In this document: one piece after another, positions 2,449 to 16,005 of the stretch | Position numbering within the stretch: position 1 is the first letter of the stretch | Layout of the letters: each line of letters opens with the position of its first letter | DNA from: an uncultured Fibrobacterota bacterium | Lineage (GTDB): Bacteria > Fibrobacterota > Chitinivibrionia > Chitinivibrionales > CAIOZP01 | DNA length: 16,891 nucleotides | Reading direction: 5' to 3' | NCBI GenBank assembly: GCA_903862805.1 | Contig: CAIOZP010000073.1 | Span: forward strand, 1 to 16,891 | Notes under the pieces: model-generated | Told to the model about the DNA's origin: nothing | Database searches by the model: none | The model's input: only the letters and a program-made list of their open reading frames with translations | Position numbers and translations under genes: made by a program

Positions 2449-3201
2449 TCATTTATCAAGCACTATCCTTGTCGAAGTAACACCGGCAGAGCTTGAAACT
2501 CTAGCGATGTAAATCCCTGACAAAAGATCCGAAATATTTATTGAAGAATGTCCGCTGAAACAATATGACCCGACCATGCGACCTGCGGCATTATACAGGC
2601 GCACTGTTTGCGAACCGGCGACACCATCAATCGTAAGTAACGATCCTTTCAACTGAACGGCGGTGTATTCATGAGCCAAATTATTCTGCCCTGTTTTTAT
2701 CGCTACATTTTTATTGCAACTGTCAGCAAGGGCCGCTTCAATGGCGCTGACAAGCGCTGTAGTATCAGCTGCGATCTGTACCTTTCGCCCATCGGGATGA
2801 AAAACATAGTCGATACCTGCGGCTTGAGGATATCCGACATCCTGGACAATGGTATGCCCTCCTCCCTCTAAAGGAATGATCGGGAAAAGAGGCGTCGTAT
2901 TAAACGGATCTGCCTGATAGGCCGCAATGATTGTTGCTGCGCTGTCAAAATCAGTCACACCAAGAAGGACGATCTCGTTCTGGTTACTTCCATATCTCGA
3001 ATAAATCGCATTGATGCCGCTCCCGGCGGCTTTACAGAGTTGTCACTGTGACCATGTCTGCATAAGGACAACGTGCTTGCCCTGTGCAAGCAGATCACTC
3101 AGCTTCCAGGTGGTGCCGAAATTATCGGTGCCTGTGAAATCAGCGCCCATTGCAGTTCCTGCCAGCATTGCGGCGGCAAGAATTGTCTGGATGATTTTCA
3201 T
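2449..3201 (-). CDS. Secreted redoxin-like selenoprotein C (UxxC) with T9SS-like C-terminal domain
   Basis: This is a 250-residue protein whose codon 53 is TGA (3045-3043), read here as selenocysteine. It starts at the ATG at 3201, with AAGGAG 7 nt upstream. Residues 1-20 are a signal peptide (IIQTILAAAMLAGTAMGA). Residues 22-180 look like a thioredoxin/redoxin fold: TDNFG..WKLSDLLAQGKHVVLMQTWSQ, then Sec53-Gln-Leu-Cys56, replacing the usual CxxC, and later YPQAAGIDYVFHPDGRKV, like the cis-Pro and PDG segment of AhpC/TlpA relatives. Residues about 182-250 form the sorting-type domain ending GVTSTRIVLDK. A stem-loop starts 12 nt after the TGA. The true stop is also TGA. It is the last of three paralogues, 76 nt after selenoprotein B. 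The activity (peroxidase, reductase or disulfide exchange) is not determined. The alternative, a nonsense-disrupted gene, is unlikely because the frame stays conserved on both sides. Confidence 0.85.
3016..3045 (-). promoter_or_regulatory. Selenocysteine UGA and bacterial SECIS stem-loop of selenoprotein C
   Basis: The UGA is at 3045-3043. After 12 nt comes GCCGC-CGGGA-GCGGC (3030-3016), a perfect 5-bp GC stem with a 5-nt loop whose second base is G. The loop starts 17 nt after the UGA. This fits the known bacterial pattern, in which a SECIS with a G near the start of a small apical loop lies just downstream of the UGA inside the coding region and binds SelB. Confidence 0.8.
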
Positions 3202-3277
3202 AAAAAACTCCTTATAGATTTATCTTGTCCGCTTCACAAAAATGAGAAGACAAAGAGTGACTCCTTCAAAAAACCAT

Positions 3278-4120
3278 TTACTTTTTACTTCTGTTTCCCA
3301 CAACTATCCGGCTTGAAGTTGCACCTGAAACACCACCGATTCGTGCGATGTATGTTCCTGAAGCGACACCATCAAACTCTGTTGAATTGATCCCTGCAAC
3401 ACAGTTCATTCGATTCAACCAGACAACTCTTCCATCGGCACTGAAGAGAGAAATTCCATACAGTCCGTTTTGCGAAACAGTAAATCGCATCTGCTTACCC
3501 ATGGCAGAAAGAATCTTTGTTCCTGCATTCGCACTTACAAAAGGATCATGTTTCAGAGAGCTCGGCACTCGCTTATCCAGCACCATTTGCACCACAAGAG
3601 GAACATCGGCCGCATCGGCCCCGCACCAATAAAGGGTTCGATCAGGCCCGATAACCCAGAAAAACCCTGCCCCTTGGGCCATCACCGGATTCCCTGTAAA
3701 TCCTGAGAAAAGAATAGGCGGGAGTCTTGTTCCATCTGCTCCAAAAATCTTGGGCGCATCAGGTACCACACCGGCTTGAGCCTGATAGGCACCATCGAGT
3801 TTCGCCAAATCATCAGTTACCAATACGTCGTTAATTAACATGACAACATCTTGAGTATTACTTCCGAGATCCGCATACAATTTTTTGACTGTGCCACCGG
3901 CCCAGATGCAGGTTCACCCGGAATATGTAGTATGAATAACCAGCACTTTGTTCTGGTTAAGGATGTTATCGATATTGTACTGCTGGCCTTTTTCGTCAGT
4001 GACAACCAGTCCGGTGGGATTTACCACAGTACCGGCAGAATCTGTAAATGCAGCTGATGCGGTAAAGGCTGCTGAAAAAACAAAGAATGCCGAAGTTATG
4101 GCATTTACTCTTTTACTCAT
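3278..4120 (-). CDS. Secreted redoxin-like selenoprotein B (UxC) with T9SS-like C-terminal domain
   Basis: This is a 280-residue protein with an in-frame TGA at codon 69 (3916-3914), read as selenocysteine. The start at 4120 follows GGAGGGG. Residues 1-24 are a signal peptide (AFFVFSAAFTASAA). The redoxin-like segment runs VVTDEKGQQYNIDNILNQNK, then VLVIHTTYSG, Sec69-Thr-Cys71, and after it LYADLGSNTQDVVMLINDVLV. One codon is missing relative to the paralogues, giving UxC instead of UxxC. The middle (GFTGNPVMAQGAGFFWVIGPD) matches the corresponding part of selenoprotein C. Residues about 200-280 are the sorting-type domain (YGISLFSADGRVVWLN ... SGTYIARI ... SSRIVVGN). It lies 44 nt after selenoprotein A, so probably in one transcript. 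The stop is TAA. It is the most diverged of the three. An independent second gene starting near 3880 is not supported, because the only start available there is a TTG without a ribosome site. Confidence 0.85.
3872..3916 (-). promoter_or_regulatory. Selenocysteine UGA and bacterial SECIS stem-loop of selenoprotein B
   Basis: The UGA is at 3916-3914. Eight nt later is CUGGGCC-GGU-GGCACAG (3905-3889): three pairs, a G-A mismatch, three GC pairs and a GGU apical loop. GGU is the classic loop sequence of bacterial SECIS elements. The loop starts 15 nt after the UGA. UGCAU (3910-3906) can also pair with AUGCG (3876-3872), extending the stem. Confidence 0.75.
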
Positions 4121-4164
4121 TTTCCCCTCCCAAAAAGGTAAATAATGATTTCATAAAATTCCTT

Positions 4165-4983
4165 TCAACGATCAAGCACGATCCGTGTCGAAGTAACACC
4201 AGCAGTGCTTGCAACACGAATGATGTAAGCGCCGGCGGTAAGATTGGCAAGGTCAATCGCAGCAGATTTCCTGACTTGAAATGAACGAGCCATGCGACCG
4301 GCGGCAGTAAAGAGCTGCACTGTTCCGGAACCGGCGATATTGTCGATCATCAGCGAAGATCCGACCAACCTGATTCCATTATGTTTCGGAAGTAGAGACA
4401 CACGACTTCCGGGTACGACAGACACTACCGGTTTCCCTAAGCTCGCGAGTGCACTGTTTATACTGTCGGTCCACTCTTGCGTCTCAATCATGGCTATCGT
4501 ATCTGGGTTGCTCGTAAACAAAGAGGTACTTGTGATATCATGCCTGCTCTTATCCGGAAGGAACATCCAGATCTTCCCGTTCATTGATGATATGCCGACA
4601 ACCGGCACAAATGTATCGGCTCCGCAATCAGCTCCGATTATAGGAAATATTGGAGTAGTCACATACGGGGTATCCTCATACGCACTGATCATTGTCGCCA
4701 CATGATTGAATTGAGCTGCTGCAAGTATCACGACATCTCCGGTATCATTTCCGAATGTTGTAAACAGGTTGTTTATAGCTCTCCCGGAGCTCAGGCACAT
4801 TGGTCATGTGTAATATGTTTGTTCCATTACTACAATTTTATTTTGAGCAAGCAAATCTGATAGCACCCATTGCTTCCCATTGTTGTCTGTGCCGATAAAA
4901 TTTTCGGTACCAGTCCAAAACTCACCGGCAAATGCGCTGCCGGCAAACAGTAACGCCGCGAAGATACTCAGTTTCTTTTTCAT
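4165..4983 (-). CDS. Secreted redoxin-like selenoprotein A (UxxC) with T9SS-like C-terminal domain
   Basis: This is a 272-residue protein with TGA at codon 60 (4806-4804), read as selenocysteine. The ATG at 4983 is preferred over the one at 4998, which overlaps the GGGGG ribosome site. Residues 1-19 are a signal peptide (KKKLSIFAALLFAGSAFA). The redoxin-like core runs GTDNNGKQWVLSDLLAQNK, IVVMEQTYYT, Sec60-Pro-Met-Cys63, then FGNDTGDVVIL. The spacing from LSDLL to the Sec equals that from LSDL to CxxC in TlpA/AhpC relatives. Residues about 203-272 are the sorting-type domain (GTVQLFTAAGRMARSF ... TAGAYIIRVA ... GVTSTRIVLDR), close to that of selenoprotein C. It is the first gene of the three, with a promoter-like sequence about 70 nt upstream. 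Its stop is TGA, so one codon has two meanings in one message. The likely role is thiol/selenol redox chemistry outside the inner membrane or at the surface; the substrate is unknown. Confidence 0.87.
4777..4806 (-). promoter_or_regulatory. Selenocysteine UGA and bacterial SECIS stem-loop of selenoprotein A
   Basis: The UGA is at 4806-4804. After 12 nt comes AGCUC-CGGGA-GAGCU (4791-4777), a perfect 5-bp stem. It has the same CGGGA loop, stem length and 17-nt distance from the UGA as in selenoprotein C, although the stem sequence differs completely. That is what selection on RNA structure predicts. Confidence 0.8.
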
Positions 4984-5215: not shown

Positions 5216-6886
5216 CTACTCTACAACATGCCTGAAGCTCTGAGTTGCTCCATCTACATTCAACCGGACGACATAAACGCCTTTTGTTTTCGGCAGATTC
5301 AGCTCATGTATCCCGCAGGCAAGTCTGGTCGTATTCATCTGCGACAGAACCTGTCCTCGGAGATTCAAAACTGAATAACCCAGATCAGCCGACTTCGAAA
5401 GATTGATCGCCATACCGGATCCTGATGGCACAAGTTTGTACGTTGCTGAAAGCCCCGCAGGATTCGAGATAATCGGAGTAGCGGATTTTTTCGTATATAC
5501 CATGATTGCCGCGGTACCGGGATTATTTGCAGCCAGATCTACAAAAATATTTCCATTCCCGATGAACGTCTGCAGAGGTTTAGCAACGGCATGGTCGGCT
5601 GACAAAGATAGTATCGCACTTTCAACCGGAAGCCCGTATCCCTGACCGGGAGTTACATATTTGACAAGCACATGCATCGTATCGCCCTGCTTGCCCTGAA
5701 GCGGCTGAGGAAGCGGAATAGTATAGTAACCCGCCTCGTTGAAACTTGAGGAAAATGAAGCAAGTGGGCTGTTGAAATAGAAATATGAGCCCGTCAATGT
5801 CCGTTTAGAAAATACGGTAATATCTGCACGAGCGTTGTTAGTTGTCATGTATGTTCCGATAGCCGTTACCTTTTCGTCACCGTTAAGAACAAAAGACATT
5901 GCGAGATAACCGGAATCAATGCCGGTTCCAACGTGTGTACAGAATCCCAAAGTGTCGTAGTAGTATTGGTATTCGTCATCTTTAGGCACGGTAAGATCTT
6001 CAAAGGAAATGGCGTGTTTCACAGCACTGAGATCATCATAGGAAATCCAGAAATATCCATTTTCACTTCCCCAGGTAGCACCCCAACTGTTCTTGCAGAG
6101 CCAGGCCCCTTTATTTGTCGCAGTGGGGATGGTCATGGTATCGTCCCAGCCTGCCAGTGTTATTGCATGGTTGATCGTTGTCAGGCCATAGTAATAATTG
6201 TACGTCGTGTGAGCTCCGAACTGGTAAAGAGACAGCATGCTATACATTTCAGTATAGAGTGCACCCACATCCATCAGTGCCTGTTTGATCTGATCGTTTC
6301 CGACAAACTCACGGGATTTTCCTACATGTAGAACCGCAGGGAAATGAGCTGAAGTTTGATTCGTTTCACTGAACGGATCACTTGCATCAAGAACGGGGCC
6401 TTCCCATCGTGAAAGATAAGCCTGACTTCGGTAACTGTTACCTGTACCATCATCCCACATTGAACGATTCCGAAGATTTTCTTCCGAAAAATCATATACC
6501 GGAAAGCCGGCGTTAATAGCTTCACCTTCAAGTGTGCCGCATGTTGCAAATGCCCAGCAATCGCCACTGTTCCCCTGATCCTTTGCAGGTGTGATTAACT
6601 TCAGAGACCGCAGATCGTACTGAGCGGGAATAGTTGCACAGTTCTTTTTGATGACAGGATGGGCTCTGAGGAACTCGACATTATCCACCGGAGATGGAGT
6701 GGTTCCACATCTCGGATCGACTGACGCACTGTGATCCGATGCTTTGCTCTGTTCCGCCTGCCATTTCAAAAACGCCGGAGATAGCGGAGCAAAGCTGTAT
6801 TTAAATTGCCCGGCATCGTCACTGAATGCGGTACTCGCAGCGATCATCGTAGCTGCGAGTACCAAATAAGAAAGTTTATAGTTCAT
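5216..6886 (-). CDS. Exported papain-family (C1) cysteine protease with lectin-like and sorting domains
   Basis: This is a 556-residue protein. The ATG at 6886 (AGGAG about 6 nt upstream) is preferred over 6922, because it directly opens the signal peptide MNYKLSYLVLAATMIAASTAFS. A propeptide-like stretch of about 65 residues follows. The peptidase C1A domain (about 85-305) has all catalytic elements: Gln104 in KDQGNSGDC, nucleophile Cys110 in CWAFATCGTLEG, His240 in INHAITLAGWDD, and Asn266 in CKNSWGATWG. Residues about 308-430 resemble the lectin-like domain (PF18560) that follows C1 domains in many bacterial proteases. Residues about 483-556 are a sorting-type domain (GYSVLNLRGQVLSQM ... 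KGVYVVRLNVDG). It is the last gene of the protease operon, 48 nt after the DUF2271-like gene. The expected role is extracellular or cell-surface protein degradation. Confidence 0.9.
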   Translation of the reverse strand: MNYKLSYLVLAATMIAASTAFSDDAGQFKYSFAPLSPAFLKWQAEQSKASDHSASVDPRCGTTPSPVDNVEFLRAHPVIKKNCATIPAQYDLRSLKLITPAKDQGNSGDCWAFATCGTLEGEAINAGFPVYDFSEENLRNRSMWDDGTGNSYRSQAYLSRWEGPVLDASDPFSETNQTSAHFPAVLHVGKSREFVGNDQIKQALMDVGALYTEMYSMLSLYQFGAHTTYNYYYGLTTINHAITLAGWDDTMTIPTATNKGAWLCKNSWGATWGSENGYFWISYDDLSAVKHAISFEDLTVPKDDEYQYYYDTLGFCTHVGTGIDSGYLAMSFVLNGDEKVTAIGTYMTTNNARADITVFSKRTLTGSYFYFNSPLASFSSSFNEAGYYTIPLPQPLQGKQGDTMHVLVKYVTPGQGYGLPVESAILSLSADHAVAKPLQTFIGNGNIFVDLAANNPGTAAIMVYTKKSATPIISNPAGLSATYKLVPSGSGMAINLSKSADLGYSVLNLRGQVLSQMNTTRLACGIHELNLPKTKGVYVVRLNVDGATQSFRHVVE

Positions 6887-6934
6887 AGGTATCTCCTGGT
6901 ACTGAATTCTTTGTTGCCTCATATCCGAGCTACT

Positions 6935-7741
6935 TTATTTGATTGTTATCTGATTTGTAACTCTGATTCCGTTTGATCTCACTACCGCGAGGTATCGACC
7001 GGCACTTATCGATTGAATCCCGATCGATTGCGAGCCTACGATTTTTCTACTCATAACTTTTCTTCCCGATGCTGTGAAAAGTTCGAATGTCGAGTTCGCT
7101 GTAATTCCAGTAAGTGCAATCCTTCGACCGACAACTTGCATGGTTGGAGTTGATGAAACCAGACACTCGCTGTTGATTAGAGAATTTCCTGCTGGAGTAA
7201 AGTTAATTGATATGTCTTTGAAAACATCCGCCGTGGTTTCCACTGAGTCATAGGTAAACTTGTCATTATTCCAGACCAACAGTACTCCGGTATAAGAGTA
7301 GTTTTGCGGAGTGACCGTAACAGGTGATGATCCGACAGCTATTTCCGTAAACATCGCGGGGCCGGAATCATCGTTTTCAGTCATTTCAAACCATACACGA
7401 TATGCACCATCAGGGACTTTGTTTTCAGATGTATCCGTACAATTCCAGGTTAGAGTATGTGTCCCATGTGTCAACAATGATGCCGATGTTTTCGCGTCTA
7501 CTGTGTCCATTGTTGGGTTCATGGCAACAAATTTTGCCAGATAATGCCCGTAGTTCTGGGCGTTCAGCTCAAGCGTCTTTATGAAGTTATTATTTGTATC
7601 TGTAACCCAGAATGCTGAAACATGTTTTGGTGCGAACCAACCATTATAAGTGTCAGTCGTTACATTAATCGTAACTGTACCAGCTGCCCAAGTAGCCACA
7701 ACACAAGTCATCAAAAACAGTACTACCTTTTTCACAATCAT
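6935..7741 (-). CDS. Exported DUF2271-like protein with sorting-type C-terminal domain
   Basis: The protein has 268 residues from the ATG at 7741. A GTG at 7735 (KKVVLFLMTCVVATWAAG) has better spacing to the AAGGAG site and is a real alternative start. The signal peptide ends near residue 20. Residues about 22-150 resemble DUF2271: APKHVSAFWVTDTNNNFIKTL, then HGTHTLTWNCTD, then VPDGAYRVWFEM, the FlgD-like beta pattern of that family. DUF2271 proteins are periplasmic or exported and often lie near iron or flavin-linked export genes, but their function is unknown. Residues about 195-268 match a T9SS-like sorting domain (STFELFTASGRKVMSRKI ... SAGRYLAVVRSNG ... NQITIK). It lies 50 nt after the second C25 gene and 48 nt before the C1 gene, so it is probably co-transcribed. 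I cannot say whether it helps the proteases or is an independent surface protein. Confidence 0.72.
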   Translation of the reverse strand: MIVKKVVLFLMTCVVATWAAGTVTINVTTDTYNGWFAPKHVSAFWVTDTNNNFIKTLELNAQNYGHYLAKFVAMNPTMDTVDAKTSASLLTHGTHTLTWNCTDTSENKVPDGAYRVWFEMTENDDSGPAMFTEIAVGSSPVTVTPQNYSYTGVLLVWNNDKFTYDSVETTADVFKDISINFTPAGNSLINSECLVSSTPTMQVVGRRIALTGITANSTFELFTASGRKVMSRKIVGSQSIGIQSISAGRYLAVVRSNGIRVTNQITIK

Positions 7742-7791: not shown

Positions 7792-10197
7792 TCACCGTTC
7801 AATAATTCTCTGTGTCGATTTGATTCCCGGCCCGTCAACAGAAAGAATCTTCATGCCCGCAGCCTGATGAAATCCTGCTAAACCGATAGTGTTATTTCCG
7901 ATACCGAGATTTTGTTGGCTATGCCAAAGCGTGCGGCCGTCAGCACTGTATAGAGTCACAGTCCACAAGCCTGCTGTTGGTATTGTCAGTTGAATTCCGC
8001 TTTGAATCAGTGACGCCGCAAATGCAATCTGCTTGCCGTTCATTGGCTTTGTGACATTTGGAACTACCGCATTAGAATCAATAAGGATATTTGCAATGTA
8101 AGGCCTGACATTTATACCGGTGACGGTAAGAGTCAGATTAGTTCCTTGCGAAAGACCATTCAGATCAATCGACGCACTTCCACCGGAAACAGTTCCTGCT
8201 CCGACAAGTTCACCCGTTGCCGGATTGACAAGCGAGATCATTCCCTGATCGATAGTTCCGATATTATTAACGGTAAATGTGCCGGTTCCACGAGTCGTTG
8301 ACGCATGCGAAGGCGCGATCGTTACCGGAACATCAGTCCACATTCTCAGTGTCGGATCGCTGAACCATTCATACTCACGGTACTGCATCTTCGTCAAAGA
8401 AGCATCGTCAATAACTAATTCCGACATGCACTCGGTCATCCGAAAGAGCCCCTGCTGAAGAGCGTCGCCCATGGCAGTGATCGCCGGGTGAGCTACGAGA
8501 GTGGGATTCGGAACGAAATATGTGCCGGTATTTGTCATCGTCAGTCCGGGCGACGGCCAGAGCGCATCAACAATTCCGACCATCAGCGCCTCGTTGAATG
8601 CCATCCACGATGGAGCAGTTGCGGCGATAACACCAACCGCTCCGCCGTTACTCTGCGTGAGGCATGCTTCAGCGAAGCTCTTTCTTCCGGCAACAGTGAA
8701 TTCTCCGCATTCACAGTCGATGGCCAATATGACCGGCAGAAGATCGCCGTTTGTCAATGTGGACAGATCGGATGTCATGAAATGCGGTTCAACCCAACCT
8801 TCGATATCGCCATGATCGTAGTGATAGACAAAGGATGTCCCCTGGTTAATGGCCGATGCGATATCTGCTGCCGTTGCATTCCAGCCATAGTTGGGTTTCT
8901 GGAGTTCGGCTGGAATTGCACCGCCATTTCCATAATTGGTATTATTCCATGTGGAAGGCGATACCCATGAATCCGCTGTATACGCCCGCTTCGATGAAAT
9001 TCCGAAGTTGGTTGAGAGATACGAAATAATTTCTTCATTATATTGGATCATTCCATTGTCAGCCATGCTACCGCCAGAGCATGTAAAATATCCGGAAGAT
9101 AGAGCGCTCTTATAGAACGATGATTGCGTCGGTGGCGTTTTTTCATAGGTAATGATTTTTCTCACCGCTATCATTGCCTCAGCAGGAGATGCGCAGAGTA
9201 TTCGTCCAAGAGACATGTCTGGAACATAATCATTCACTCCATCCATGCAGACATAAGCCTGATCATCCGGATAGGTATTTCCGTTATATGTCAGGTTGTA
9301 ATCGTGAGCATCTATCACATTTTTACCGCCGATAATCAGCACGTATCCTGGATGCGGAGTTTGGGAATCATAGAACTGTTTGATACGGGCAGAAACATCT
9401 GCGGCATTGGTTTCGACTATCGACCCAAGCCCCTTCATCCGCTGCCATACCGCAAGTGTTTCAGCCGCATCCTTATAGGCGGGAGGAGTAATGATCAGCA
9501 CATCACTGCGAAGAGTTCCGGCAGCATTCGATGGGCTCGGCAAAGGCGCCGGTGCGCATACAGCCACCGAAGAGAAGTTGCTTGCAGATGAAAGCTGCGT
9601 CCTCTGGTTTGGACGCATCGAGGCCAGCAAAGAAGGATCAGCCGCCGCGAATGTGATATGAAAATTTACTTTCCGATATACGATCAATTCCTTGCGAACC
9701 GGGTTGTAAGACACCGGTGAAAGTGCGATCGTTGTAAGAGGCATTCCGGCGAGCATAACAGTTCCGGCAACCCATGTAGGACTTGCATGAACCGGTGCAT
9801 CCACCGAATAACAAGACGCAAGCGAGAACGGTGCTTCCGGCGCGATTGCAGGACGCGGGGCACTTGCAGGATAGACCAGTATATTTCGTATCGTATCAGC
9901 CTTGATCACATCATAACTCACCTGCACTGCAGGATCTTTGGCTGTGATAAACTTCAGCATTGAGAAAGGAAGCGCTGGTATCCCCTGATTGCTCTCAAGA
10001 GCAAATCCCTCGGCCTTCAGTGTTGTGTAAGCAACTCCATCTTTGATCACCGGTATCTGTTGCATGCCGTCAAGTTCAAGACAGACTTCCGCAGAATTTC
10101 TATCGGCTCTTACAACTGTCTGACCATAGGCCAATGCAGATGACGCACATATCGTTCCAACCAACACAAGCGTCAAACCCAATGAAGTTGCTTTCAT
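7792..10197 (-). CDS. Gingipain-type (C25) cysteine protease, second tandem copy
   Basis: The protein has 801 residues; the ATG at 10197 follows a GGAG site. The signal peptide ends near residue 23-25. Residues about 26-230 are a propeptide-like beta domain. The Peptidase_C25 domain spans about 232-625. The catalytic His is His462 in YHYDHG and the nucleophile is Cys495 in DCECGEF, 33 residues apart, the same spacing as His211/Cys244 of gingipain RgpB. Further family landmarks are SFAEAC...GGAVGVIAATAPSW and YEWFSDPTLRMWTD. An Ig-like segment (about 628-715) and a T9SS-like sorting domain (about 725-801; TVTLYSADGRTLWHS ... STQRIIER) follow. It starts 26 nt after the stop of the first copy and shares about 88 percent identity with it over the last 162 residues. 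Its stop is TGA, which shows that TGA terminates normally here. Confidence 0.92.
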   Translation of the reverse strand: MKATSLGLTLVLVGTICASSALAYGQTVVRADRNSAEVCLELDGMQQIPVIKDGVAYTTLKAEGFALESNQGIPALPFSMLKFITAKDPAVQVSYDVIKADTIRNILVYPASAPRPAIAPEAPFSLASCYSVDAPVHASPTWVAGTVMLAGMPLTTIALSPVSYNPVRKELIVYRKVNFHITFAAADPSLLASMRPNQRTQLSSASNFSSVAVCAPAPLPSPSNAAGTLRSDVLIITPPAYKDAAETLAVWQRMKGLGSIVETNAADVSARIKQFYDSQTPHPGYVLIIGGKNVIDAHDYNLTYNGNTYPDDQAYVCMDGVNDYVPDMSLGRILCASPAEAMIAVRKIITYEKTPPTQSSFYKSALSSGYFTCSGGSMADNGMIQYNEEIISYLSTNFGISSKRAYTADSWVSPSTWNNTNYGNGGAIPAELQKPNYGWNATAADIASAINQGTSFVYHYDHGDIEGWVEPHFMTSDLSTLTNGDLLPVILAIDCECGEFTVAGRKSFAEACLTQSNGGAVGVIAATAPSWMAFNEALMVGIVDALWPSPGLTMTNTGTYFVPNPTLVAHPAITAMGDALQQGLFRMTECMSELVIDDASLTKMQYREYEWFSDPTLRMWTDVPVTIAPSHASTTRGTGTFTVNNIGTIDQGMISLVNPATGELVGAGTVSGGSASIDLNGLSQGTNLTLTVTGINVRPYIANILIDSNAVVPNVTKPMNGKQIAFAASLIQSGIQLTIPTAGLWTVTLYSADGRTLWHSQQNLGIGNNTIGLAGFHQAAGMKILSVDGPGIKSTQRIIER

Positions 10198-10223
10198 ATT
10201 TTGCTCCAATTTCTTTTTATCAG

Positions 10224-12647
10224 TTATCGCTCAATAATTCTCTGTGTCGACCTGATCCCCGGCCCTTCAACCGAAAGGATTTTCATGCCGGCAGCCTGAT
10301 GAAACCCTGCTAAGACGATAGTGTTATTTCCGATACCGAGATTTTGTTGGCTATGCCAAAGTGTGCGGCCATCGGCACTGTATAGAGTCACTGTCCACAA
10401 GCCTGCGTTTGGAATTGTCAGTTGTATTCCGCTTTTAATCAGTGATGCTGCAAAAGCAATTTTTTTCTCGCTCAATGGGTTTGAAATATTCGGAACAACT
10501 GCATTTGAATCAATCGTGATATTTGCTATGTAAGGCCTGATATTGATACCGGTGACTGTAAGAGTCAGGTTGGTTCCTTGAGAAAGACCGGCGAGATCAA
10601 TCGACGCACTTCCGCCTGCAACCGCACCTGCACCGATGAGTTCACCGGTTGCCGGATTGACAAGAGAGATCATTCCCTGATCTATCGTTCCGATATTGCG
10701 TACTGCAAATGTGCCGTTGCCGCGAGTCGCTGATGAGTAAGTCGGGGCAATCGTAGCAGGAAAATCCGTCCAGATACGCATGGATGGGTCGCCGAACCAG
10801 TGATACATTTCTATATGCATTCGATTTAAATCGGTAGCGGGATTTACCATATTCATCGCGAACTTACCTTGATTGAGCGCCTCACCCATCGAAGGCATTG
10901 AACCATGCTGTGGCAGTGTCGCATTCGGAACAACATTAAAGACTGAACCGAAATCGATCCCCGGCCAGATCGCATCAATGATGCCGCACATCAGGATATC
11001 GTTGGTCCCCTCATATGATGGCGTACTTGCCGCAACAACACCAACAGCTCCGCCGGAATCCTTTGAGATGAATTTTTCTGCCAGACATTGTCCAGCCGTG
11101 CTGTTGAAATTGCCGCAGAGACAATCTATCGACAATACAACGGGAAGAAGATCAGCATTCTTCAGCAGATCAATTTTGCTGTTACTGTAGGCCGGCTGAC
11201 CCCACTGCTGATCAAGGCCATGATCGTAGTGATAAAGGAGAAATCTTCCGTTATCAAGTGCCGCGTTGATATCGGTTGCAGTTGCATTCCACCCATAATT
11301 CGGCACTTTGATATCGGCCGCTACCGTTGGGTCGTATCCGACGCCTTCGCTCCAGTATGTTTGCGGATTGGTAGCTTCGGAGGCTCCATTCTGCGCTGCA
11401 GCATAGTAGAGATGATCGGCAGCTATGTTTGATTTTTTCAGATGAGCCCGAACGATCTCGCAGGTTCTGACAAAACCGTCATCTTCTTCACCATACGGTG
11501 GACCTTCGTCATTCCAGTAACTTGCTCCGGCAGCCGTTGTATAAAACGACGCCAATGTCGGCGGTGTTTTTTCATACGTCACGATCTTTTTGACTATGGT
11601 CATCGCCTCATCGGCAGTAGTGCATGGTATGCGACCTCCTGCCATATCGGCTAGATAATCATTATCGCCATCCATGCAGACATATCCGAGATCCGTGGGA
11701 AACGGTGAAAATGAAACATTCAGGTTTGACATATAGGACGCGGGGACATCACCGATGCCACCGAGAACCAGAACAAATCCGGGATGCGGTGTCGTCGAGT
11801 TGTAGAATTCTGTCGTACGGGTCTTGACAGCATCGGAACTCCAGGAGGCGCGGGCATCAACAACCGAACCAAGTCCCTTCATCCGCTGCCAGACAGCAAG
11901 TGTTTCTGCGGCATCTTTATAGGCAGTGGTTGTAATTATCAGAACGTCGTTTCGACCGGCAGTGGCGACTGCTGAATACGACCGTGCAAGAGCCAGGGCA
12001 AACGATGATGCATTGCACGCTGCCGAAGCAAGCTGGTCACGCTGATTCGGTCGCATACCAACAAACGGCGACGGATCTGCAGCTGCATATGAGACATGGA
12101 ATTTCACTTGACGATAGAGAATAAGTTCTTTGCGAACCGGGTTATAAGATACCGGCGACAATACAACAGTTGTCAGCGGCATCCCGGAAAGAAGCATTGT
12201 ACTGGCAACATACGACGGGCTTGCAGGAACAGGCTCGTCAGCTGAGTAGCATTTGTCAAGCACAAACGGTGTCGGCTGATCAGGCACGTTTGCAATTGCG
12301 GGAGCATGTTGCTGCGCCGGATGAACAAGAATGTTGCGGATCGTATCTGCCTTCACAACATCGCAAATCACCTGAACCGCTGGATCACGCGCAGTCAAAA
12401 TTTTTATCAGTGAGATAGGTAGCGCAGGTAAGCCTTCTCTGGTCTCGATGCCGAATCCGTCGGCATGAATCTTCGTATATAAAACGCCATTCCTGTCAAC
12501 AGGAGTCAGCGTGGCATTATCAAGTTCAAGAATAACATCAACTGAATTTCGTCCTGCATTGGAAATCGTCTGTCCCGATGCAATCGCAGACGAAGGCCAT
12601 ATTGATGCAGCCGATGCAAGCATCAACAGAAATAAATTTGATCTCAT
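10224..12647 (-). CDS. Gingipain-type (C25) cysteine protease, first tandem copy
   Basis: The protein has 807 residues. The frame is open up to 12800, but the extra 51 codons have no signal-peptide character, while the ATG at 12647 follows GGGAGATT and opens the signal peptide RSNLFLLMLASAASIWPSSAIA. The propeptide-like domain is about 25-235 and Peptidase_C25 about 235-630, with His476 in YHYDHG and Cys509 in DCLCGNF (33 apart, as in gingipains), then GGAVGVVAASTPSY and YHWFGDPSMRIWTD. The Ig-like segment and sorting domain (about 730-807) are nearly identical to those of the downstream copy, while the catalytic half differs more. Compared with it, this copy has a longer insertion around 380-450 (GPPYGEEDDGF and following), which may alter substrate preference. 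It is the first gene of the four-gene secreted-protein operon. No clear promoter was recognised upstream. Confidence 0.92.
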   Translation of the reverse strand: MRSNLFLLMLASAASIWPSSAIASGQTISNAGRNSVDVILELDNATLTPVDRNGVLYTKIHADGFGIETREGLPALPISLIKILTARDPAVQVICDVVKADTIRNILVHPAQQHAPAIANVPDQPTPFVLDKCYSADEPVPASPSYVASTMLLSGMPLTTVVLSPVSYNPVRKELILYRQVKFHVSYAAADPSPFVGMRPNQRDQLASAACNASSFALALARSYSAVATAGRNDVLIITTTAYKDAAETLAVWQRMKGLGSVVDARASWSSDAVKTRTTEFYNSTTPHPGFVLVLGGIGDVPASYMSNLNVSFSPFPTDLGYVCMDGDNDYLADMAGGRIPCTTADEAMTIVKKIVTYEKTPPTLASFYTTAAGASYWNDEGPPYGEEDDGFVRTCEIVRAHLKKSNIAADHLYYAAAQNGASEATNPQTYWSEGVGYDPTVAADIKVPNYGWNATATDINAALDNGRFLLYHYDHGLDQQWGQPAYSNSKIDLLKNADLLPVVLSIDCLCGNFNSTAGQCLAEKFISKDSGGAVGVVAASTPSYEGTNDILMCGIIDAIWPGIDFGSVFNVVPNATLPQHGSMPSMGEALNQGKFAMNMVNPATDLNRMHIEMYHWFGDPSMRIWTDFPATIAPTYSSATRGNGTFAVRNIGTIDQGMISLVNPATGELIGAGAVAGGSASIDLAGLSQGTNLTLTVTGINIRPYIANITIDSNAVVPNISNPLSEKKIAFAASLIKSGIQLTIPNAGLWTVTLYSADGRTLWHSQQNLGIGNNTIVLAGFHQAAGMKILSVEGPGIRSTQRIIER

Positions 12648-13005
12648 ATAATCTCCCATGAAACTTGAAGTTTTACAGTTCAAAAAACTCAACCATTCCC
12701 AACGGTAGTTCCTCCGTCGCAACAGAGTATTTCCAGCATATTCCGTGTAAACGCAAACAACCGTTTCTGGAAAACCTTCCCGGAAATCATCTATTAGCAC
12801 GAACCTGAACTACTTGTATATCGGGGCTGCCATTTTCAAGGCAACCCCTATTGTCATGGAACTAAATCCGAGCATCAACACTGCAACAGTTTCTGTCTAA
12901 GCAGAACATTTCCTCGCCGTGTAGACAGGCAAACCAAGCCCCCCTATATGTTCGTGTTGACACTCATCTTCGAAGTTCCAGACATATTTCTAATTTTTTA
13001 TCAGG
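12648..13005. other. Non-coding leader of the protease operon with inverted repeats
   Basis: No credible gene was seen. On the minus strand, GGGGUUGCC/GGCAGCCCC (12848-12823) forms a 9-bp hairpin, including one U-G pair, with an 8-nt loop. CTGTCTA/TAGACAG arms (12893-12899 and 12922-12928) form an inverted repeat with a 22-nt spacer. TTTCCGGGAAGG...TTCCAGAAACGG (12788-12763) has a shape like a shortened version of the structured elements at 2358 and 5124. No T tract follows any of these, so terminator calls are not justified. Leader regulation of the C25 genes is possible but unproven. Confidence 0.3.
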
Positions 13006-13715: not shown

Positions 13716-15191
13716 TCAGTTGAAACCTTTGGCTTTTACGTGAAAGATCCGGCCATCGCTGGTCGAGATCCATCCCGTCGAATTCTCAATCGCAAGTGCA
13801 GATGGTCTGCAGGTAATTGACAAAGGCGAAGACAGAGACGAGAACAATCTCCAGCTTCCCGCATTGTAAACTTCGGCAGTGCCACCGGCACCGATCATCC
13901 ATAGTGATCCACCAGATGTAACCTTCAAATCATTCAATGTATCGTTAAGGATCGCGGAATTCCCTTTAGAAAAGTCAACAGCTGCTGCCGGTCCAAGTTT
14001 GAATAAACCATTTGTTGGAGCAGCCCAGATGTCGCCTGATGAAATCGCCATGTGGCTTATATTTGCAGGGACATTCGGACGTGTATCCTGAGTCAGTACT
14101 GGCGCACCGGAAGTAGTCATGGAGAAAAGACCAGTTGCTCCTACGCAGAAAGCACTTCCACTTCTGTCTGATGCAATAGCCGAAATACCAACAGTCGAGC
14201 TGGTTATTCTGCCATCTCCGGTACCATAATGGCATACAGTCCCTGAGCTTGTAAGTAGAAACAGCATTGTATCTGATACCGCGGCAATTTTTGTAACCGT
14301 TGACAATGGACTTCCTGCATCGAAGGAGGTGGATGTGCGAGAAGTACCATTTCCATCACAGAAGCCCAAACCATTTCCTGAAGCGATGGCAATCTGGCTT
14401 CCGAACTGCGCAAGGTCGAAGACTGCCGTTCCATATGGAGCGTCTATCTGCGTGAATTTGCCATCTGTAAGTTTAAAGCGTCGGATGCCGGTGGAGTCTC
14501 CGAAAACAAGCGTGTCTCCCTGCATAAGAACTGCATTCGCACCTGATGTTACGCCAGGAAGAGTGTATCCGGTCCACTGAACACTATCCGCACTTACAAA
14601 AACCTGCCCACAAGCAGAAACTTCAAGACTATCAGTAACCACAGTCCTGCTTCCGCTTGCCGAATCAACGTAGAAAAGTAAAACATTGGCAAGTGGAGCA
14701 AGATCTGTAAGAAGAATCAAGGAGTCTGTAACCGAAATTGTTTTTGTGTACGGGGTTCCAATAATTCCGAAGATCAAAGTAGAGCCGATGAATGATCCGG
14801 GAACTGTAACTGACATAGTAGTTGGGTCGGCGCATTGCATATTTTCAAGCTTAGCACCAGCAACAATATTATCGACAGATGCAACATCGCCGGATATGGT
14901 TCTTATCCACAACCGTGCTGCACTTGCAAACGAAAGGTGCATTGTGAATTTTCCATTTGAATCGGTACGGACAGAATCACTGGATTGAATTGTATCTTTA
15001 GTAGGATCGAAGGCTGCAGGAACCGCAACGACCAAGGCTCCGGGTGAAACAGCGCCAGTGGTGTCGTGCACAATTCCGGCGACCGCATTACAATCTTCCA
15101 CAGAGCCTCCGGTAGAGGATGTGGACAATGAACAGGATGCGACCAGGCACACCAGCAACAGCAGGATTAAGTTTTTAATTTGAGCTGACAT
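13716..15191 (-). CDS. Lipoprotein with regulatory-like beta domain and beta-propeller
   Basis: The protein has 491 residues. The ATG at 15191 is chosen because AAGGA lies 7 nt upstream and it opens a lipoprotein signal; the frame extends to 15269 inside the regulator gene. The lipobox is VASC with Cys20. Residues about 33-110 (VAGIVHDTTGAVSPGALVVAV ... TDSNGKFTMHL) look like a carboxypeptidase-regulatory-like beta-sandwich. The second half (about 200-490) has repeated blades such as GNGLGFCDGNG, GATGLFSMTTSG, GDIWAAPTNGLFKL and GGSLWMIGAGG, with WISTSDGRIF closing it: a seven-ish-blade propeller of the periplasmic sensor kind. The start overlaps the end of the TIGR02147 gene by 17 nt, indicating coupled translation. 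I infer an envelope protein that works with, or is controlled by, that regulator. The stop is TGA. Confidence 0.78.
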   Translation of the reverse strand: MSAQIKNLILLLLVCLVASCSLSTSSTGGSVEDCNAVAGIVHDTTGAVSPGALVVAVPAAFDPTKDTIQSSDSVRTDSNGKFTMHLSFASAARLWIRTISGDVASVDNIVAGAKLENMQCADPTTMSVTVPGSFIGSTLIFGIIGTPYTKTISVTDSLILLTDLAPLANVLLFYVDSASGSRTVVTDSLEVSACGQVFVSADSVQWTGYTLPGVTSGANAVLMQGDTLVFGDSTGIRRFKLTDGKFTQIDAPYGTAVFDLAQFGSQIAIASGNGLGFCDGNGTSRTSTSFDAGSPLSTVTKIAAVSDTMLFLLTSSGTVCHYGTGDGRITSSTVGISAIASDRSGSAFCVGATGLFSMTTSGAPVLTQDTRPNVPANISHMAISSGDIWAAPTNGLFKLGPAAAVDFSKGNSAILNDTLNDLKVTSGGSLWMIGAGGTAEVYNAGSWRLFSSLSSPLSITCRPSALAIENSTGWISTSDGRIFHVKAKGFN

Positions 15192-16005
15192 CTTCATTTC
15201 CTTTAACCAGGGGGAAAAGCTGAACACTGCAGCGATATATTCTATCCGCCGAACCGGAATCCACTGCAATTTGCGAAATCCTATGGCGAAATCTCCTGAT
15301 TTCTTCCTTTAACAATGGCAGACATTCTTCAGACAGTGCCAATGTCACACCGGAAATATCACGTTTTTCAAGCGGCGTAGTCAAAGCAAGTGCCGCCAGA
15401 TCAAGCATATCTTTTTGAAACCGAACAACAAGGAACGAATGAACATCATCTCCGGTGGTCAGCGAAGTTTCACATCTTTCCCATTTATCGTCTTCTGTTT
15501 TTTTTATGAAACCACCTTTCACAAGTGCTGCTACAGCCTGTGAAACCTCGTCTGCGCTTATCGGTGGCATCAATCGTTTTCCCAAAACAGCATAGTCGTT
15601 CGATTGTTCCATCACCAGAAGTTCACGCAGAGGCGTATAGTACCATTTTGAGAAAAGGTTCAAAGATGCACTCTGGAGAAGTTTTGCTTTGACCCGGCGA
15701 TATGACAGTAGTTGTTCAAAAAAATGATTTTTCTCATCGACGGTTGTTGCATGCGAGAAAAGAACCATTGTCTTGAAATATTTTTTTTCAGACTCTGAAA
15801 GGCCAAAGAGGTCACCGATCTTCGATGAAAGCTCAAGCGACAGCTTACTACGGCCCGCAATGATATTGCTGAGATAGCCATTCGATGTCAGCCCGAGCCG
15901 TTTTTGAATCGCTCTCATGCTATAGGCAGCGCCAATCGCTCGTTTTTCGGCAAGTATATCTGCTAAAAAACGACGATAATCAAGGTATTCATGGATATTG
16001 ACCAT
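15175..16005 (-). CDS. TIGR02147-family (DUF4423) putative DNA-binding regulator
   Basis: This 276-residue protein begins MVNIHEYLDYRRFLADILAEK, the typical opening of TIGR02147 proteins, which occur in many copies in Fibrobacter and relatives. Residues about 25-60 (YSMRAIQKRLGLTSNGYLSNIIAGRSKLS) form a helix-turn-helix of XRE type. DUF4423 covers the rest: FGLSESEKKYFKTMVLFSHA, a winged-helix-like part around 140-175 (ISADEVSQAVAALVKGGFIKK), and EECLPLLKEEIRRFRHRI near the end. There is no signal peptide, so it acts in the cytoplasm. The gene overlaps the downstream lipoprotein gene, suggesting a two-gene unit. Its own upstream region carries a motif that also precedes the vWA gene, which would fit autoregulation plus control of that gene (inference). 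The biological function of the family is not established. Confidence 0.88.
   Translation of the reverse strand: MVNIHEYLDYRRFLADILAEKRAIGAAYSMRAIQKRLGLTSNGYLSNIIAGRSKLSLELSSKIGDLFGLSESEKKYFKTMVLFSHATTVDEKNHFFEQLLSYRRVKAKLLQSASLNLFSKWYYTPLRELLVMEQSNDYAVLGKRLMPPISADEVSQAVAALVKGGFIKKTEDDKWERCETSLTTGDDVHSFLVVRFQKDMLDLAALALTTPLEKRDISGVTLALSEECLPLLKEEIRRFRHRISQIAVDSGSADRIYRCSVQLFPLVKGNEDVSSN

What the first reader, a model, noticed from the sequence alone, without database searches (positions are those of the whole stretch)
2449..4983. Three tandem selenoprotein genes hidden behind in-frame TGA codons
Three adjacent genes each consist of a signal peptide plus half a redoxin fold, one TGA, then the rest of the fold in the same frame. 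The TGA falls at codons 60, 69 and 53, always at the first active-site cysteine position, with Cys 2-3 codons later (U-P-M-C, U-T-C, U-Q-L-C). Standard annotation would give six fragments. Three independent nonsense mutations at one homologous position are not credible. Thioredoxin-like selenoproteins are known, but a tandem triplet of exported ones is, to my knowledge, unusual.
Basis: partly seen in the sequence, partly recalled or inferred. Interest (0 to 1): 0.95.

Follow-up and report, generated by a model that had tools for sequence, protein, structure and literature searches.

The report
Tandem cell-surface selenothioredoxin genes
Three neighbouring genes are each interrupted by one TGA codon at the catalytic cysteine position of a thioredoxin-like protein, and eleven more such genes lie elsewhere in the same bacterial genome; they likely encode selenium-containing redox proteins predicted to be carried to the cell surface by the type IX secretion system.

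Summary
Confirmed and extended. On the minus strand three adjacent genes (4983-4165, 4120-3278, 3201-2449) each carry one in-frame TGA (codons 60, 69, 53) at the first active-site Cys of a thioredoxin-like domain. All three end in a T9SS sorting tail (TIGR04183, 3 of 3 over cut-off) placed after the TGA. The same genome (83% complete) holds 14 such genes on nine contigs, with a second tandem triplet; all 14 TGAs share one alignment column. Eleven more TGA homologues occur in three genomes of the same order, three reading WUGPC. Hairpins with G-containing loops after the TGAs exceed all 1000 synonymous-codon shuffles in the 14 and in the 11, but a stricter fixed-centre test fails in the 11. tRNA-Sec and selD are present; selA and selB were not found here, but a 90%-complete relative with eight such genes has two full sets. 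So these are almost certainly selenoproteins. Surface display is inferred from tail plus SprA. Function is inferred: thiol-disulfide exchange, possibly on secreted cysteine peptidases, whose genes adjoin four of nine loci. Thioredoxin-like selenoproteins are known; a T9SS-cargo expansion did not appear in my searches.

The parts
4165..4983 (-). sel1: predicted exported thioredoxin-like selenoprotein, 272 aa, U60 in UPMC
4804..4806 (-). in-frame TGA (predicted Sec codon) of sel1
4777..4791 (-). predicted SECIS apical hairpin of sel1: AGCTC-CGGGA-GAGCT, +13 to +27 after TGA
4177..4341 (-). T9SS type A sorting tail of sel1 (TIGR04183, 31.2 bits, cut-off 23)
3278..4120 (-). sel2: predicted exported thioredoxin-like selenoprotein, 280 aa, U69 in UTC
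3914..3916 (-). in-frame TGA (predicted Sec codon) of sel2
3889..3905 (-). predicted SECIS hairpin of sel2: CTG-g-GCC-GGT-GGC-a-CAG (one mismatch)
3299..3484 (-). T9SS type A sorting tail of sel2 (24.6 bits, cut-off 23)
2449..3201 (-). sel3: predicted exported thioredoxin-like selenoprotein, 250 aa, U53 in UQLC
3043..3045 (-). in-frame TGA (predicted Sec codon) of sel3
3016..3030 (-). predicted SECIS apical hairpin of sel3: GCCGC-CGGGA-GCGGC
2461..2622 (-). T9SS type A sorting tail of sel3 (36.0 bits, cut-off 23)
5216..6922 (-). papain-family (C1) peptidase with lectin-like domain and T9SS tail (24.3 bits), directly upstream
6935..7741 (-). FlgD-Ig-like protein, T9SS tail just over the cut-off (23.2 bits)
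7792..10209 (-). gingipain-like C25 peptidase (T9SS tail match below cut-off, 15.2 bits)
10224..12800 (-). second gingipain-like C25 peptidase (T9SS tail match below cut-off, 15.6 bits)

Best explanation
The three genes are predicted to be selenoprotein genes whose in-frame TGA likely encodes selenocysteine at the attacking position of a TlpA/ResA-like thioredoxin active site, and whose products would be sent by an N-terminal signal and a C-terminal sorting tail through the type IX secretion system to the cell surface, where they would act as thiol-disulfide redox enzymes. Steps shown by sequence: the single TGAs in one column, frames and protein constraint continuing past them, hairpins with G-containing loops after them, tRNA-Sec and selD in the genome, T9SS tails placed after the TGA, and SprA in the genome. 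Because the signal-like N-terminus and the tail lie on opposite sides of the TGA, only the read-through product could be a T9SS cargo. Steps inferred: insertion of Sec by a SelB missing from this incomplete assembly, transport, and redox activity outside the cell. The likeliest substrates (weakest step) are disulfides or oxidised active-site thiols of co-secreted cysteine peptidases (C25, C1), whose genes adjoin several of the loci.
For: 14 own-genome members with exactly one TGA, all in one column; 11 TGA homologues in three genomes of the same order: 8 of 9 matches in G033, 2 of 3 in G034, 1 of 1 in G026, three of the 11 reading FWATWUGPC. Cys counterparts: L034 CGWC, P0006 WCGPC, and Cys in the single matches of five other genomes of the phylum. 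tRNA-Sec 66.8 bits, gathering score 47, anticodon TCA; selD 304.2 bits, cut-off 125. G033 (90% complete): two tRNA-Sec, two selA, two selB, each over its cut-off. Flexible hairpin score, 14 own genes: 177 against 112.7 +- 9.2 in synonymous shuffles, 0 of 1000 reach it; 11 relatives: 126.5 against 83.9 +- 8.8, 0 of 1000; 9 Cys/Ser controls: 66.5 against 60.9 +- 8.1, 258 of 1000. Pair counts on 16 of the 25 sequences, centred by hand: 87.5% of cells paired, 30-41% when slid, 42.2% when shuffled; 38 cells changed on both sides against 13.5. T9SS tail over cut-off in 3 of 3 window proteins and 6 of 10 relatives scanned; 8 of 14 own members at E <= 1e-3, one of the 14 being cut off by its contig end. 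SprA over cut-off in 4 of 4 genomes, 0 of 14 control genomes. Fold matches: DipZ C-terminal domain and ResA at the top, mirolase C-terminal domain for the tail. Purifying selection past the TGA, 7 of 7 pairs.
Against: selA not found and no true selB in the window's genome; G026, with one TGA homologue, shows no selA, selB or tRNA-Sec over cut-off (69% complete). The window matches no Rfam family at gathering score. Folding energy is only weakly unusual (Stouffer z -3.05 own, -1.68 relatives; a window upstream of the TGAs averages -1.35, stronger than the -0.87 at the site). A fixed-centre hairpin test succeeds for the 14 own genes (64 against 40.0, 0 of 2000; centres chosen after looking) but fails for the 11 relatives (26 against 22.4, 352 of 2000 reach it). 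The flexible score was written after that failure and after I had seen both sets of sequences. Relatives L056 and L044 score below the shuffled mean per gene, and L057 stops 24 residues after the TGA. Model confidence is low (mean pLDDT 56), and the window proteins alone stay below the Pfam cut-offs for redoxin families. The protease link is circumstantial.
Confidence: 0.88

Rival explanations
1. The TGAs encode selenocysteine, but the proteins stay in the periplasm or cell envelope and the tails are ordinary Ig-like domains; they work like periplasmic ResA/TlpA/DsbE proteins.
For: TIGR04183 scores are modest (24.6-36.0, cut-off 23) and PF18962 stays below its cut-off in sel1 and sel3 and is not listed for sel2; only 8 of 14 own members match TIGR04183 at 1e-3, and 4 of 10 relatives do not reach it.
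Against: SprA, the T9SS translocon, is over cut-off in all 4 genomes searched; the neighbouring papain and FlgD-Ig proteins carry the same tail; Foldseek finds a T9SS C-terminal domain (mirolase).
Confidence: 0.08
2. The genes are pseudogenes or assembly errors, so that TGA is a real stop.
For: Metagenome-assembled genome of 748 contigs; selA and selB not found.
Against: 14 of 14 TGAs in one catalytic column, other genomes with the same change, constraint past the TGA, covarying hairpins, tRNA-Sec and selD.
Confidence: 0.01
3. TGA is read as another amino acid (tryptophan, glycine or cysteine) by a changed code or a suppressor tRNA.
For: The frame is open with any reading of TGA.
Against: sel1 and sel3 themselves end in TGA; one TGA per gene, in the catalytic column in 14 of 14; a tRNA-Sec with TCA anticodon is present.
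Confidence: 0.01
4. Selenoproteins and T9SS cargo as in the best explanation, but the role is peroxide or electrophile defence or selenium storage at the surface, unrelated to the peptidases.
For: The fold list also holds peroxiredoxins and GPX. On four own contigs (C492, C94, C185, C12) the one neighbour that I scanned is no cysteine peptidase; C122 was not scanned. G033 has 38 C25 matches, only 3 of them on contigs near TGA homologues.
Against: C25 or C1 genes adjoin the TGA genes on 4 of 9 own contigs (C73, C110, C450, C357; the last a partial gene of 26.2 bits that one search did not list); 2 of 7 C25 loci lie on contigs that make up 2.1% of the genome, crude post hoc P 0.008.
Confidence: 0.4

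Closest known systems
TlpA/ResA-like (cd02966) UxxC and UGC selenoproteins, e.g. 'UGC-containing TlpA disulfide reductase family protein' and 'thiol-disulfide isomerase-like protein' (Table 1 of PMC13188914, read)
   Same: Thioredoxin fold; Sec at the attacking position of UxxC or UGC (three own members read UGC)
   Different: Here a C-terminal T9SS tail follows, the family is multiplied (14 in one genome) and partly tandem; the table, which the paper says holds 119 families, shows no T9SS entry
NCBIfam NF041054 WAxxUGC_long, ResA-like WAxxUGC motif-containing protein
   Same: ResA-like with Sec at the same kind of site, by its name
   Different: Only 18.9 and 20.1 bits (cut-off 300) for two relatives, not listed for the window proteins
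Bacterial SECIS of E. coli fdhF
   Different: Three other UxxC genes have the loop one codon later, the six UxC genes about one codon earlier
T9SS type A cargo (gingipains, mirolase)
   Same: TIGR04183 tail, SprA in genome, C25 peptidases next door
   Different: No paper listed by the searches joining selenoproteins with T9SS was, by its title, about selenoprotein cargo
Database protein P0006 (256 aa, 50 member sequences): Cys-form thioredoxin with Por_Secre_tail
   Same: Same domain order, WCGPC at the TGA position
   Different: Cys, no Sec

Membership tests
Bacterial selenoprotein | In-frame TGA at a position where homologues have Cys | tested here: met
Bacterial selenoprotein | Frame and protein constraint continue past the TGA | tested here: met
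   7 of 7 pairs tested
Bacterial selenoprotein | SECIS hairpin immediately downstream | tested here: met
   for the own genes; the fixed-centre test fails for the relatives, energies are weak, no Rfam match in the window
Bacterial selenoprotein | tRNA-Sec and selD in the genome | tested here: met
Bacterial selenoprotein | selA and selB in the genome | tested here: inconclusive
   Not found in G000 (83% complete); both present, twice, in G033
Bacterial selenoprotein | Sec in the protein | not testable with these tools
   needs mass spectrometry or 75Se
TlpA/ResA-like thioredoxin family | Sequence or fold similarity to TlpA/ResA | tested here: met
   Family level: PF00578 over cut-off in 4 of 10 relatives, 6 of 14 own members match it at E <= 0.01. 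Window proteins alone are below cut-off (sel3 22.9 and sel1 14.5 bits against 26, sel2 not listed). Foldseek ResA TMt about 0.6 on a model of mean pLDDT 56
T9SS type A cargo | C-terminal sorting domain over the curated cut-off | tested here: met
   3 of 3 in the window by TIGR04183; Pfam PF18962 below its cut-off
T9SS type A cargo | T9SS translocon in the genome | tested here: met
   SprA, 352.7 bits with its neighbours in the frame in G000, cut-off 200
T9SS type A cargo | Signal peptide | not tested
   Hydrophobic N-termini seen by eye; no predictor was run
T9SS type A cargo | Transport to the surface and cleavage of the tail | not testable with these tools
   -
WAxxUGC_long (NF041054) | Score over the cut-off of 300 | tested here: not met
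   18.9 and 20.1 bits for two relatives; window proteins not listed

The most novel reading that the evidence does not exclude
A surface selenol system: a T9SS lineage displays a battery of selenothioredoxins outside its outer membrane that reduce and thereby switch on its own secreted cysteine peptidases (C25, C1), so that selenium supply controls extracellular proteolysis.
Probability: 0.25. Interest if true: 0.92.

Novelty: new variant of a known kind. Interest (0 to 1): 0.74.

Why it matters
Selenols oxidise readily (recalled), so placing predicted selenoproteins, 14 in one genome, on the cell surface is unexpected. It would add T9SS cargo to the known places of selenoproteins and raise a direct question: what reduces a thioredoxin outside the outer membrane? 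Such genes are easily missed: for the two own-genome members that the protein database returned (P0004, P0005), it holds only the half after the TGA. A relative with two divergent Sec-insertion cassettes in one genome would also allow a test of SelB/SECIS specificity.

Tried and rejected
Protein search with sel1 alone found only its own fragment. Folding-energy z-scores did not separate the site from an upstream window. A SECIS covariance model was not built: I judged the hairpin too short to be specific in 3 Mb. Pseudogene, changed-code and assembly-error readings rejected (see rivals). The top selB match in the own genome was rejected as EF-Tu from its translation. Literature searches. From PMC13188914 I read section 7 parts 1-2 of 3 and section 10 and passages; from PMC9312934, PMC5029168 and PMC12013277 passages only; of all other papers only search listings.
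Full report
What is there. The window is contig 73 of a genome assembly (3.13 Mb, 748 contigs, 83.2% complete). On the minus strand, three adjacent genes have frames broken by one TGA each. With TGA read as U the proteins are 272, 280 and 250 aa with U60, U69 and U53. sel1 and sel3 also terminate in TGA, so the codon is not reassigned wholesale.

A genome-wide family. A profile of the three proteins gave 41 matches in the genome at E <= 0.1, many of them to the shared C-terminal tail only. Sixteen cover the thioredoxin domain: 14 with exactly one TGA, two with none. The domain profile A2, built from these same 16 and so not an independent test, matches the same 16 at E <= 1e-8. The 14 lie on nine contigs: C73 (3), C492 (3), C94 (2), C110, C357, C450, C185, C12, C122. 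In the alignment of the 14, all TGAs fall in one column. The two without TGA have CGWC (L034) and SSC (L022) there. A phylum-wide scan matched 9 of 167 genomes, the own one included; in three genomes of the same order (other families) 11 of 13 matches carry one TGA: G033 8 of 9, G034 2 of 3, G026 1 of 1. The single matches of the other five genomes have Cys. Three relatives read FWATWUGPC, the usual thioredoxin site with U for the first C. So the trait is confined to few genomes of the phylum in this search.

Is the TGA translated? (a) Past the TGA, pN is below pS in all 7 pairs tested. (b) Hairpins. A flexible score, for a stem closing a 3-7 base loop that contains GG or GT, gave 177 in the 14 own genes against 112.7 +- 9.2 in synonymous shuffles (0 of 1000), and 126.5 in the 11 relatives against 83.9 +- 8.8 (0 of 1000). 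Its loop rule came from the own genes, but I wrote it after seeing both sets and after the fixed-centre test had failed in the relatives (26 against 22.4, 352 of 2000; own genes 64 against 40.0, 0 of 2000). Nine Cys/Ser homologues at the same place gave 66.5 against 60.9 +- 8.1 (258 of 1000). In 16 sequences centred by hand (14 own, 2 of 11 relatives, chosen because they fit) the five pairs of the stem are formed in 87.5% of cells against 42.2% in shuffles and 30-41% in slid registers, with 38 two-sided changes against 13.5; such a choice leans towards the structure, but the two-sided changes among the 14 own genes do not depend on it. The loop G-G-G or G-G-U sits at +19 to +21 after the TGA in 5 of 8 own UxxC genes, the place of G-G-U in E. 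coli fdhF, at +22 to +24 in the other three, and at about +16 to +18 in the six UxC genes. Also against: energy z-scores are weak, and the window has no Rfam match.

Machinery. tRNA-Sec with TCA anticodon (66.8 bits) and selD (304.2 bits) are present. selA is not found and the best selB match is EF-Tu. In G033 two sets exist: tRNA-Sec, selA and selB on C6 and again on C244, with SelB 32% and SelA 39% identical. G034 has tRNA-Sec and a selA cut by the contig end. G026 shows none over cut-off (69% complete). The absence in G000 is best read as missing sequence, but this is inference.

Where the proteins go. Hydrophobic signal-like N-termini are visible by eye; no predictor was run. The C-terminal tails score over the TIGR04183 cut-off in 3 of 3 window proteins and in 6 of 10 relatives scanned (the eleventh, 85 aa, was not given); 8 of 14 own members match at E <= 1e-3. 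SprA is over cut-off in 4 of 4 genomes. The tail lies after the TGA, so export by T9SS requires read-through. The model of sel1 (three-sequence alignment, mean pLDDT 56) matches the DipZ C-terminal domain and ResA for the first domain and the mirolase T9SS domain for the tail.

What they might do. The active site argues for thiol-disulfide exchange. Upstream of the triplet lie a papain-family and two C25 peptidases. A C25 or C1 gene adjoins the TGA genes on four of nine own contigs: C73, C110, C450, and C357 by a partial gene of 26.2 bits that one search did not list. On C492, C94, C185 and C12 the one neighbour scanned is no cysteine peptidase; C122 was not scanned. In G033, C25 genes lie 5-8 kb from the tandem pair on C119 and about 3 kb from the gene on C239, but that genome has 38 C25 matches. 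The crude enrichment in G000 (2 of 7 C25 loci on 2.1% of the genome, P 0.008) is post hoc, and both gene kinds are T9SS-related, which may cluster anyway. I rate activation of peptidases as possible, not shown.

Novelty. The family table of a 2026 review lists TlpA-like and redoxin selenoproteins but none named for a T9SS tail (PMC13188914). Searches for selenoprotein with type IX secretion, selenocysteine with T9SS, and selenocysteine with Fibrobacterota gave 1, 2 and 1 papers, by title none on the subject; Chitinivibrionia with selenoprotein gave none. The library holds open-licence papers only. Larger selenoproteomes (57, 63 genes) are known, so the count alone is not a record; the combination of T9SS tail, paralogue expansion and tandem arrays is what I did not find described.

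Noticed in passing
G033 contigs C6 (L095, L084, L072) and C244 (L096, L080, L077): One relative carries two divergent Sec cassettes (tRNA-Sec, selA, selB), SelB 32% identical; contamination not excluded (2% estimated). By eye the own-genome tRNA-Sec resembles the C244 type, that of G034 the C6 type.
   Followed up: partly
L092 (G000:C6) 2312-2405 and 2455-3711: A 418-aa ORF on the opposite strand that looks, by eye, like a tyrosine integrase ends about 50 bases from the tRNA-Sec gene, as if a mobile element had used tRNA-Sec as its insertion site.
   Followed up: no
L004/L093 1-916 (G000:C738): selD has a Cys-rich N-terminal stretch (CICDPKRPCPC..CPC), and adjoins ORFs that look like an activase and a dehydratase (named by eye).
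   Followed up: no
L113 (G034:C492:443-838): An AhpC-TSA family match (124.3 bits) with one in-frame TGA, perhaps a further selenoprotein; where the TGA falls was not examined.
   Followed up: no
L022 (G000:C306): A TGA-free paralogue has Ser-Ser-Cys where the others have U-x-C, and a threonine/aspartate-rich N-terminal stretch.
   Followed up: no
L085 (G000:C492) 174-2784: A second tandem triplet of TGA genes on a 5.8-kb contig, mixing two subfamilies (by eye from the alignment).
   Followed up: partly
window 15175-16005, minus: TIGR02147 (Fsuc_second) regulator next to a putative lipoprotein; a similar-looking pair lies beside TGA genes on C492, C94 and G026:C270 (by eye).
   Followed up: no
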